This document shows, piece after piece, positions 34,389 to 37,017 of a stretch of 41,785 nt of DNA. The DNA comes from an uncultured Erysipelotrichaceae bacterium (lineage in GTDB: Bacteria > Bacillota_I > Bacilli_A > RFN20 > CAG-826), in contig CAMGZU010000004.1 in the NCBI GenBank assembly GCA_946183085.1, positions 1 through 41,785 on the forward strand, given 5' to 3'. Below the pieces are notes generated by a model, which had not been told where the DNA came from, did not search any database, and saw only the letters and a program-made list of their open reading frames with translations. A program made the position numbers and the translations under genes. Within the stretch, counting starts at the first letter, position 1, and each line of letters begins with the position of its first letter.

Positions 34389-34874
34389 ATGCCCACCGAC
34401 TACATCAAACAAATTCGCAAAACCATCGGACATGACCCGCTTCTCGGGGTTGGCCTTGGGGTTTTGATCTTCAACGAAAAAGAAGAGATTCTCTTAGAGA
34501 AAAGAACCGATAACGGCCTTTATTGCCTCGTTGGCGGAGGCGTCGACCTCGGCGAAAAAGTGATCGAAGGCGCCAAACGTGAGATCAAAGAAGAGACCGG
34601 CCTCGACATCGAGGAACTCCATTTCATGGGCGTAAAAAGCGGCGAAGAGCAAAAGCTTCTCTACCCCAATGGCGATCTCACCTACTACGTCGATTTCTAT
34701 TTTCATTGCCACATCGATAGCCGCAAGCAGACCCCAAAGATCAGCGATGGAGAATCCACCGAGCTTCGTTTCTATCCCTTAGACCAACTCCCGCCGGAAG
34801 AAAAGCTCCTCCGCGGCACGAAGGAGCCAATCGAATATTACCTAAGTGGCAAGAAAGAGCCTTTCATTGACTAA
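34389..34874 (+). CDS. NUDIX hydrolase
   Basis: Nudix box GGGVDLGEKVIEGAKREIKEETGLDIEEL. Confidence 0.93.
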   Translation: MPTDYIKQIRKTIGHDPLLGVGLGVLIFNEKEEILLEKRTDNGLYCLVGGGVDLGEKVIEGAKREIKEETGLDIEELHFMGVKSGEEQKLLYPNGDLTYYVDFYFHCHIDSRKQTPKISDGESTELRFYPLDQLPPEEKLLRGTKEPIEYYLSGKKEPFID

Positions 34875-36364
34875 ATCGAGGCCACGTTCCCCATATAAAT
34901 GGGGAGCCCATTCGAATCATAGATGCAATAAACAAACGGCTGATTGAGTTTCACTTGGTAAGTGCCGTTGACGGGAGCGGCTGAAGTCGCTCCATAGCCG
35001 GACGTCACCGTAACGGAAACGATCTCCGTGCCGTCTTCTTTGAAGGAGATGGCGTTTTTCTGCTTGCTGAAATCGAGCCAAAACGACTTGTCTTCGTTTT
35101 CGTTGAAGATGGCATCCATCGGATTCCCATAGGGGACAAACGCCGAAGGAAGGAATGTCTCTTTCAAACACTTCGTGAAGTCGGTTTCCGCCGTTGCGGT
35201 GAACTTCGGGACCGAAAGTTCCACCGCATAGGAATCCTTGAGGCGATGGCTTTCATCGTCATGGAGGAAATCCGCATCGCCCAGGAGGTCAAAGATGTTA
35301 TCTTGCGTCGATTTCGGAACGAGGTATTGGATCGACATCAAATTCGCGTAATAGTCCCGGACGGAGACATATTTGTCGTATTCATAAATCGCGCCGCGGT
35401 AAGTGTGCTGCATGTAGGTGACGTTCTCTTGAATCGTGCTTCCATAAAAGGACGCTCGGTAAGAATCGTTGGTGCTGAAAGCGCTCGCCCATTGGTTGTT
35501 GAAATACATGGTCGTCACGAATTGAAAGGCCGTCTCCGGCTTCACGTCAAGGAAACGGGCGTCAATGAAGCCATCGCGTCCGGCTTTGGCGTTCGCCCAG
35601 GAAGCAACGCGCGCCACATCCTCTGGGTTCTGGTAATCCAATTGATACGCCTCGCAATAACGGCGGCTCATTTCGGTGACGAAATCCGGATTGGGGGTAA
35701 GCTTGCCTAAATCAGGGCGGCCATCATCGAGGAAGACGCCATTATAGATTTGAAGCGTGCCTTGCTCTTGATAGAAATAGTCACTCAAATAGGCGCTTCG
35801 GAAGTTGGCGGCGCGGAGCGTATAATCACCGCCCAACAAGGCGTTAAACTCCTCCCGTACATTTTCTTTTTGGGTGCCCAAGGAGACCAAATCCAAATTC
35901 AGGTAGAGCGGAAGGGGCGCAAAGCCGAAGTTGCCCTTCTTCTTTGTTGCTTGGTAAATCTTGTTCGAAAAGCTCAGCACGCCCTCTTTATAGGCGTTAC
36001 TCACCTCTCTTCTCCGATATTGGGTGCCATCAGGGTAAGTAATGCTATTAAGGGATTTAAAACTCGAGGCTTCGATGTCCTTGGCTACGTTGGCGGAGAA
36101 GCTTTCGCTGTTCCGCCTGAAGCTCCGCTCGGTCTCGAAGGTCGTGCCAGTAACGAGCATCGCCCCTGCCACGACGATCCCGGTGACCAAAACGATTGGA
36201 ACGGCAATCAAAACGCCCTTGCTGATTCTTTTGCCAAGCATGCCGTCATGGGCTCGTTCCGGACGCTTCAAATCCACTTCCTCGACGTTAACGTGGGGTT
36301 CAGGCACTTCACGTGCCGCCTGGATCTTCTGGATGGATTCTTCTTGGAACGTATTCTTTTTCAT
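34871..36364 (-). CDS. Membrane-anchored serpin-family protein
   Basis: N-terminal TM VLIAVPIVLVTGIVVAGAMLV; serpin landmarks VTTMYFNNQWASAF, ELSVPKFTATAETDF, AISFKEDGTEIVSV...FVYCIYDSNGLPIYMGNV. Confidence 0.85.
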   Translation of the reverse strand: MKKNTFQEESIQKIQAAREVPEPHVNVEEVDLKRPERAHDGMLGKRISKGVLIAVPIVLVTGIVVAGAMLVTGTTFETERSFRRNSESFSANVAKDIEASSFKSLNSITYPDGTQYRRREVSNAYKEGVLSFSNKIYQATKKKGNFGFAPLPLYLNLDLVSLGTQKENVREEFNALLGGDYTLRAANFRSAYLSDYFYQEQGTLQIYNGVFLDDGRPDLGKLTPNPDFVTEMSRRYCEAYQLDYQNPEDVARVASWANAKAGRDGFIDARFLDVKPETAFQFVTTMYFNNQWASAFSTNDSYRASFYGSTIQENVTYMQHTYRGAIYEYDKYVSVRDYYANLMSIQYLVPKSTQDNIFDLLGDADFLHDDESHRLKDSYAVELSVPKFTATAETDFTKCLKETFLPSAFVPYGNPMDAIFNENEDKSFWLDFSKQKNAISFKEDGTEIVSVTVTSGYGATSAAPVNGTYQVKLNQPFVYCIYDSNGLPIYMGNVASI

Positions 36365-36861
36365 AACCTCACCCCATAGTGTTCGCGCGCCTTTTTCAGC
36401 GCGCCGTCATAGATCCTCTTTGCCGTCGAATGCGGGATGTTCGCGACTTCTTCGATTTCCTGAAAGGAGAATTCATAGACGACGTGGAGGACCATCACAA
36501 GGTTTTCCTTCTCGTCTAAGAAATCGTGAAGCTCCGCCAACAAGAACGTTTGCTTCTCTTCGACGCCAAGGCGCTCTGGTTCCAATAGTTCATCTTCCTT
36601 TTTCTTCCGCACGTATTCCAACGCGCTTCGCTTGGCGATGGTAAGAAGGTAGCTATGAAAGCCGGACGTCCTCTTTAAGAGGCAGATGTTCTCCAACATC
36701 TTCAAGAACGCATCCTGCGTCAAATCTTCGGCGACGGTTTCGTTCCCAACGATTTGGAGAATGAGGTAAAAGAGCAGGTTGTGATAGGCATAATAGACTT
36801 CGTTGAAGGCGTCTTTGTCCTTTTGACGAAGCCGTTTTACCGTCTTTTCTTCCACCAGCAT
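36361..36861 (-). CDS. ECF-type sigma-70 family RNA polymerase sigma factor
   Basis: AFNEVYYAYHNLLFYLILQIVGNETVAEDLTQDAFLKMLEN (region 2), FSFQEIEEVANIPHSTAKRIYDGALKKAREH (region 4). Confidence 0.9.
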   Translation of the reverse strand: MLVEEKTVKRLRQKDKDAFNEVYYAYHNLLFYLILQIVGNETVAEDLTQDAFLKMLENICLLKRTSGFHSYLLTIAKRSALEYVRKKKEDELLEPERLGVEEKQTFLLAELHDFLDEKENLVMVLHVVYEFSFQEIEEVANIPHSTAKRIYDGALKKAREHYGVRL

Positions 36862-37017
36862 CTTTCGCCCTCAACCATAGAGATGAATGACAAAAGGTTT
36901 TCATCCCAAACAAAACTAATTCTCTTTCTTTGGGGCCCGTTTTGAAAGGGCGTGATTGCGATTTGCCACCTTAAACACTAAACTTTAGTTGTTGTTTTTT
37001 CCTTATAGGAGATTTGA

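What the first reader, a model, noticed from the sequence alone, without database searches (positions are those of the whole stretch)
34871..36861. ECF sigma factor overlapping a membrane-anchored serpin in the anti-sigma position
Seen: ATGA overlap; the serpin-family protein has an N-terminal segment of roughly 45 residues, one TM, then the serpin body. Established: ECF sigma factors are commonly followed by a single-pass anti-sigma factor activated by proteolysis, and serpins undergo protease-triggered conformational change. Inference: an extracytoplasmic protease attacking the serpin loop might signal through the TM to release the sigma factor: a protease-sensing regulatory system not known to me.
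Basis: partly seen in the sequence, partly recalled or inferred. Interest (0 to 1): 0.7.

Follow-up and report, generated by a model that had tools for sequence, protein, structure and literature searches.

The report
Serpin as a sigma factor's sensor
In a group of uncultured gut and rumen bacteria, a protease-inhibitor (serpin) domain outside the cell is wired through the membrane to a gene-switching sigma factor inside it; the arrangement recurs in dozens of genomes and would make the serpin a likely built-in detector of attacking proteases.

Summary
An ECF sigma gene (36361-36861, minus strand) overlaps by ATGA a 497-aa single-pass serpin (34871-36364): about 50 cytoplasmic residues, one TM, a 60-residue linker, then a full serpin. 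The pairing is not a one-off. In 224 genomes of the same family, 56 Pfam-grade serpins in 53 genomes of 14 genera sit directly behind an ECF sigma gene and have a cytoplasmic tail plus TM. Nearly all unpaired serpins are lipoproteins without that tail. Pairs also occur in two other Bacilli families and in Clostridia. Sigma and serpin co-inherit (mirror-tree r = 0.87; 0.93 within the genus). The same sigma lineage and N-terminal segment occurs once with a beta-propeller instead of a serpin, so ectodomains are exchanged on an anti-sigma chassis. Relatives carry an ECF-type promoter motif found once per genome, in front of the sigma-serpin operon. I conclude, without binding data, that this is an anti-sigma factor with a serpin sensor. 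That the trigger is a protease attacking the reactive loop is plausible but unproven; the hinge is conserved but non-canonical (EDGTEIVSV). I found no paper describing such a system. It is a new variant of the ECF/anti-sigma kind.

The parts
36361..36861 (-). ECF sigma factor, 166 aa
   Evidence: ORF; Sigma70_r2 E=3.2e-13; TIGR02937 above cut-off; only ECF sigma found in the genome
36361..36364 (-). ATGA overlap of the sigma stop and serpin start codons (translational coupling)
   Evidence: sequence; -4 is the commonest spacing among the 56 pairs (24 of 56)
34871..36364 (-). membrane-anchored serpin, 497 aa, proposed anti-sigma factor
   Evidence: ORF
36215..36364 (-). N-terminal cytoplasmic segment, residues 1-50, proposed anti-sigma domain
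   Evidence: position before the TM; comparable segments in the paired serpins; helix 5-16 at low confidence in the AF2 model
36152..36214 (-). single transmembrane helix, about residues 51-71
   Evidence: hydropathy 2.66 peak at residue 51
35975..36151 (-). juxtamembrane linker, residues 72-130, with a conserved LN...Y motif (L105 N106 Y110)
   Evidence: alignment A1, columns 90% or more conserved
34877..35974 (-). serpin domain, residues 131-496
   Evidence: PF00079; AF2 and Foldseek
34955..35038 (-). hinge and reactive-centre loop, residues 443-470 (starts EDGTEIVSVTVTSGYGATSAAPVNG)
   Evidence: alignments; loop residues 458-468 disordered in the model
36862..37017 (-). upstream region; only a weak candidate for the ECF-type promoter seen in relatives (GATGAAAACCTTTTGTCATTCATCTCTATGG)
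   Evidence: sequence; motif; no sigma-70 promoter found

Best explanation
The two genes form an ECF sigma / anti-sigma module whose anti-sigma factor carries a serpin as its extracytoplasmic sensor. At rest the ~50-residue cytoplasmic segment holds the sigma factor at the membrane. An extracytoplasmic protease that attacks the reactive-centre loop is trapped by, or simply cleaves, the serpin. The irreversible conformational change of the serpin exposes the juxtamembrane linker to a site-1 protease, the site-2 protease then cuts the TM, and the freed sigma factor transcribes its own operon. Shown: gene order, architecture, fold, conservation, co-inheritance, exchange of ectodomains on one N-terminal segment, an autoregulation-type promoter in relatives, and a site-2 protease in the genome. 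Inferred: sigma binding, the protease signal, the conformational relay and the proteolytic cascade.
For: 56 Pfam-grade pairs in 53 genomes of 14 genera. Paired serpins have a cytoplasmic tail plus TM, while unpaired ones are nearly all lipoproteins. Mirror-tree r=0.868 against a permutation maximum of 0.148; within genus r=0.927. The serpin tree puts the window in a 43-member clade, 41 of them sigma-paired, SH-aLRT 100, with at least 4 label changes on the whole tree, so the arrangement probably arose repeatedly. The two unpaired members of the clade have lost the full tail: L079 is a lipoprotein and L104 has a shortened tail. Exchange of ectodomain: L053 has a beta-propeller (PF09826 E=6.6e-71) on an N-terminal segment matching the serpin type L052/L075 (E=2.8e-6), and its sigma is sister to that serpin group's sigmas (support 99). 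All 44 other sigma-linked proteins sampled have a TM behind a comparable tail. Pairs in other Bacilli families (L284-L286) and in Clostridia (L225, L229, L230, L235). Promoter ACGACAAAA-N13-TTGTTTTATT: one strict match per genome in 7 of 12 genomes, always in front of the sigma-serpin operon, reversed control 0. Site-2 protease PF02163 E=1.6e-47. Precedent for a ligand-binding anti-sigma factor: RsiV and lysozyme (PMC4183432).
Against: No binding or activity data. No known anti-sigma domain of Pfam is recognised in the tail. The window's own tail is not demonstrably homologous to the swapped N-termini, and its sigma is a lone long branch with no close relative. The hinge P12-P9 is IVSV instead of small residues, which may weaken or abolish trapping. 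No clear promoter motif in front of the window's own sigma gene.
Confidence: 0.62

Rival explanations
1. The protein is an anti-sigma factor, but the serpin domain is a non-inhibitory binding or stress-sensing platform; the signal is a ligand, polymer or envelope stress, not a protease on the loop.
For: Hinge P12-P9 of the main sigma-linked clade is non-canonical (V-K-S-V/I); other ectodomains on the same chassis are not protease inhibitors (beta-propeller L053); non-inhibitory serpins are known (general knowledge).
Against: P15 G is invariant and P14 T/S and P10 S/T hold in 40 of 41, with even (inward) positions P14, P12 and P10 never charged and P8 charged once while P11 is K/R in 33 of 41, which fits an inserting strand; other sigma-paired clades keep canonical hinges (GIEAAAYT, GFEAAAVT); a loop rich in small residues (SAAP) recurs.
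Confidence: 0.25
2. The serpin is only a sigma-controlled effector that shields the envelope from proteases, and the sigma factor is controlled by something else.
For: Serpins in these genomes are otherwise secreted lipoproteins that presumably inhibit proteases; the operon appears autoregulated in relatives.
Against: The full cytoplasmic tail goes with sigma pairing; co-inheritance; no other anti-sigma gene nearby; the same tail type occurs with a beta-propeller.
Confidence: 0.1
3. Chance neighbourhood of a sigma gene and a serpin gene.
For: None beyond the single case.
Against: 56 pairs in 53 genomes, recurrent ATGA overlap, and pairs in Clostridia.
Confidence: 0.01

Closest known systems
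sigma-V / RsiV (Bacillus subtilis, C. difficile, E. faecalis)
   Same: ECF sigma followed by a single-pass anti-sigma factor with a short cytoplasmic segment (RsiV TM 37-59); the ectodomain itself is the receptor for a host defence enzyme, lysozyme; regulated intramembrane proteolysis with RasP (PMC4183432)
   Different: RsiV ectodomain is DUF4163/DUF3298 and binds lysozyme; here it is a serpin, and any ligand would be a protease; no RsiV domain found
sigma-I / RsgI of Clostridium thermocellum
   Same: Several sigma / anti-sigma pairs in which anti-sigma factors of one family sense different extracellular substrates; RseP and ClpXP steps (PMC12203970)
   Different: Sigma-I is not an ECF of this type (general knowledge); RsgI ectodomains sense polysaccharide substrates, not proteases
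Bacterial serpins such as miropin, and the lipoprotein serpins of the same genomes
   Same: Serpin fold; miropin (5ncs) is the best PDB sequence match (E=1.3e-12)
   Different: They are secreted or lipid-anchored without a cytoplasmic tail or sigma partner, and the lipoproteins keep a canonical hinge. A survey of serpins noted membrane-anchored prokaryotic members but has no mention of sigma factors (PMC8233489)
sigma-W / RsiW and sigma-E / RseA
   Same: Proteolytic release of an ECF sigma from a membrane anti-sigma factor (general knowledge)
   Different: [quoted passage not shown] here the anti-sigma ectodomain would be, by direct attack

Membership tests
ECF (group 4) sigma factor | Sigma-70 region 2 | tested here: met
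   PF04542 E=3.2e-13, 49.7 bits against a cut-off of 24
ECF (group 4) sigma factor | Region 4, with region 3 absent (short protein) | tested here: inconclusive
   166 aa; PF04545 21.6 bits against a cut-off of 24.1, but TIGR02937 (ECF superfamily) 63.9 against 42.9
Transmembrane ECF anti-sigma factor | Gene directly downstream of, and coupled to, the sigma gene | tested here: met
   ATGA overlap; same arrangement in 56 pairs
Transmembrane ECF anti-sigma factor | Cytoplasmic N-terminus, one TM, extracytoplasmic domain | tested here: met
   Hydropathy and net charge of the tail; topology is predicted, not measured
Transmembrane ECF anti-sigma factor | Recognisable anti-sigma domain (Pfam, NCBIfam) | tested here: not met
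   Only Serpin is found by Pfam and nothing by NCBIfam; so it is not filed under a known anti-sigma domain family
Transmembrane ECF anti-sigma factor | Binds and inhibits the sigma factor | not testable with these tools
   No complex prediction or experiment available; co-inheritance r=0.87 is indirect
Transmembrane ECF anti-sigma factor | Autoregulated operon promoter | tested here: inconclusive
   Motif present in relatives, only a weak candidate in the window
Substrate of regulated intramembrane proteolysis | Site-2 protease present in the genome | tested here: met
   PF02163 E=1.6e-47 in G000; cleavage itself not testable
Serpin superfamily | Serpin sequence profile and fold | tested here: met
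   PF00079 E=3.8e-31; AF2 and Foldseek E=4.6e-26
Inhibitory serpin | Hinge P17-P9 ExGTEAAAA (motif as given in PMC8233489) | tested here: not met
   EDGTEIVSV: P17, P15, P14 and P13 fit, P12-P9 do not
Inhibitory serpin | Traps a protease covalently | not testable with these tools
   needs an assay

The most novel reading that the evidence does not exclude
A serpin's protease-triggered, irreversible stressed-to-relaxed transition is used as a transmembrane switch: the bait loop outside the cell reports protease attack to an ECF sigma factor inside, a one-shot protease receptor in gut Bacilli and Clostridia, with serpin ectodomains recruited onto anti-sigma chassis several times independently.
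Probability: 0.42. Interest if true: 0.86.

Novelty: new variant of a known kind. Interest (0 to 1): 0.72.

Why it matters
Bacteria in the gut and rumen are bathed in host and microbial proteases, and I know of no dedicated receptor for protease attack in Bacillota. This would be one, built from a domain whose mechanism is well understood. It would also give prokaryotic serpins, whose roles are largely unknown, a signalling function, and it offers a directly testable case of how a large conformational change outside a membrane is passed to an anti-sigma factor.

Tried and rejected
Chance pairing: rejected by conservation. A separate anti-sigma gene: none next to the operon. A known anti-sigma domain in the tail: none found. 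Regulon search with the promoter motif at 3 mismatches: extra hits are near background level (43 hits against 35 for the reversed pattern), apart from a few closer matches of which one, in G136, lies in front of a lipoprotein gene. A clear ECF promoter in front of the window's own sigma gene: not found. A group of divergent serpin-like ectodomains (L036, L041, L042, L044-L047, L050, L051, L054, L056) found by an iterated profile is left out of the 56: the three tested (L041, L042, L044) get no Pfam match and the AF2 model of L042 failed (mean pLDDT 38.5); L035 does pass Pfam (E=1.3e-8). One large ECF classification paper could not be read (not held), so an earlier mention in its tables cannot be excluded. 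Searches for papers joining serpins with ECF or anti-sigma factors found nothing relevant in titles, abstracts or counts.

Full report
WHAT IS THERE. On the minus strand an ECF sigma gene (36861 down to 36361, 166 aa) overlaps by four bases, ATGA, a gene of 497 aa (36364 down to 34871). The first protein has sigma-70 region 2 at E=3e-13 and passes the NCBIfam ECF superfamily model; region 4 is recognised below cut-off. The second has one Pfam domain, Serpin, E=3.8e-31 over residues 131-496, and its closest solved relative by sequence is miropin. Residues 1-50 precede a strong hydrophobic segment (peak at residue 51); residues 72-130 link it to the serpin. An AlphaFold2 model on 40 sequences has a serpin body with pLDDT mostly above 90 and a disordered loop at 458-468, and Foldseek finds serpins at the top, best E=4.6e-26, many of them latent or loop-cleaved forms. 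The flanking genes are a convergent NUDIX gene and a divergent flavin-reductase-like gene, the latter a weak Pfam match below its cut-off, so the operon is two genes and there is no other candidate anti-sigma gene. The assembly (about 88% complete) has a single serpin and, besides a housekeeping-sized sigma, a single sigma-70-type protein.

IS IT CONSERVED. Searching 224 genomes of the family for serpins and for the sigma factor and reading the DNA around the hits gave 56 Pfam-grade serpin genes directly behind an ECF sigma gene in 53 genomes and 14 genera; -4 is the commonest spacing (24 of 56). A further set of 58 serpins with complete 5' ends has no sigma gene. The two sets differ in build. 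Sigma-paired serpins have a cytoplasmic tail, one TM and a linker before the serpin. The unpaired ones are lipoproteins with a signal peptide and lipobox (48 by pattern, eight more by eye), L104 and L141 being the exceptions. A scan of GTDB genome contigs puts the relatives in uncultured Bacilli labelled Erysipelotrichales, Erysipelotrichaceae or Bacillales, many from rumen, omasum and other gut samples. Pairs also occur in two other families of the same class (L284, L285, L286) and in Clostridia (L224 and L225, L229, L230, L235).

EVIDENCE THAT THE SERPIN PROTEIN IS THE ANTI-SIGMA FACTOR. First, co-inheritance: distances between the sigma factors and between the serpin domains of 57 pairs correlate with r=0.868 (largest of 1000 permutations 0.148), and with r=0.927 for 17 pairs within the window's genus. 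Species relatedness contributes to such correlations; the within-genus value limits but does not remove that. Second, modularity: 44 sigma-linked proteins without a recognised serpin all have a TM behind a positively charged tail of similar length. One of them, L053, carries a beta-propeller (PF09826 E=6.6e-71). Its tail matches that of the serpin type L052/L075 (E=2.8e-6) and its sigma factor is sister to the sigma factors of that serpin group (support 99). So one sigma/tail lineage has carried two unrelated ectodomains. Third, co-loss: within the 43-member serpin clade that holds the window (support 100), the two members without a sigma gene have a lipoprotein anchor (L079) or a shortened tail (L104); they are sisters, so this may be one event. 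Fourth, the serpin tree needs at least four changes between paired and unpaired states, so the arrangement probably arose more than once.

PROMOTERS. In front of main-clade sigma genes there is a two-box motif, ACGACAAAA-N13-TTGTTTTATT. The strict form occurs once in each of 7 of 12 genomes tested, always in front of the sigma-serpin operon, with no hit for the reversed pattern. The pattern was derived from some of these sites, so its presence there is built in; its absence elsewhere in the genome is not. With three mismatches further hits are close to the level of the control (43 against 35), apart from a few closer matches, one of them in G136 19 bases in front of a lipoprotein gene. A variant, CGAACGTTTT, stands in front of sigma genes of the window's own genus (G008 and G027 among them). 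In the window only a weak candidate is seen. The operon is therefore probably autoregulated in relatives; the regulon beyond it is unknown.

THE SWITCH. In the main sigma-linked clade the hinge reads E-D-G-[TS]-x-[VAI]-K-S-[VIL]-[TS]. P15 G is invariant; P14 T/S and P10 S/T occur in 40 of 41; the inward positions P14, P12 and P10 are never charged and P8 once; P11 is K or R in 33 of 41. That alternation is what an inserting strand needs (general knowledge of serpins: even P positions face the core), so the loop probably can still insert. But P12-P9 differ from the small residues of the inhibitory consensus given in PMC8233489, and such changes are known to turn inhibitors into substrates (general knowledge). 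Lipoprotein serpins and some sigma-paired clades keep a canonical hinge (GIEGAAVT, GIEAAAYT, GFEAAAVT). A protease that cleaves or is trapped by the loop would flip the serpin irreversibly. I propose that this exposes the conserved linker to site-1 cleavage, followed by the site-2 protease present in the genome, and release of sigma. Every step of this paragraph after the sequence pattern is inference.

KNOWN SYSTEMS. It works most like sigma-V/RsiV, where the anti-sigma ectodomain is itself the receptor of a defence enzyme (PMC4183432), and like the RsgI proteins, which sense different extracellular substrates from one anti-sigma family (PMC12203970). It is not a member of the RsiV family, and no known anti-sigma domain is recognised in its tail. 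No paper found in the library joins serpins and anti-sigma factors; the main ECF classification paper was not held.

VERDICT.

Noticed in passing
L053:1973-3472 (G217): ECF-linked single-pass protein with a Beta_propel (PF09826) ectodomain on the same kind of N-terminal segment as a serpin type: an ectodomain swap.
   Followed up: yes
L310 (G136:C22:20149-20180): One-mismatch copy of the sigma-serpin promoter motif 19 bases in front of a 190-aa lipoprotein gene without a Pfam family; a possible second regulon member.
   Followed up: partly
L079 and L104 (also L206, L205): Members of the main sigma-linked serpin clade that have no sigma gene in the locus and lack the full cytoplasmic tail, one being a lipoprotein.
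   Followed up: partly
L117, L118, L080, L082, L096: Two or three lipoprotein serpin genes in tandem.
   Followed up: no
G409:C10, G451:C11, G459:C2, G520:C21, G547:C9 and C20: Serpin ORFs of 535-649 aa in which the serpin profile is matched in two pieces, apparently split by an insertion of about 100 residues or more.
   Followed up: no
L236, L237, L240, L243, L245, L248, L252, L253, L258, L262: Long serpin proteins of ~700-1200 aa in mostly Ruminococcus-labelled genomes with extra N-terminal sequence, in L252 a dockerin-like stretch.
   Followed up: no
L041, L042, L044-L047, L050, L051, L054, L056: Sigma-linked proteins with very divergent serpin-like ectodomains that Pfam does not recognise in the three tested (L041, L042, L044); the fold prediction of L042 failed.
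   Followed up: partly
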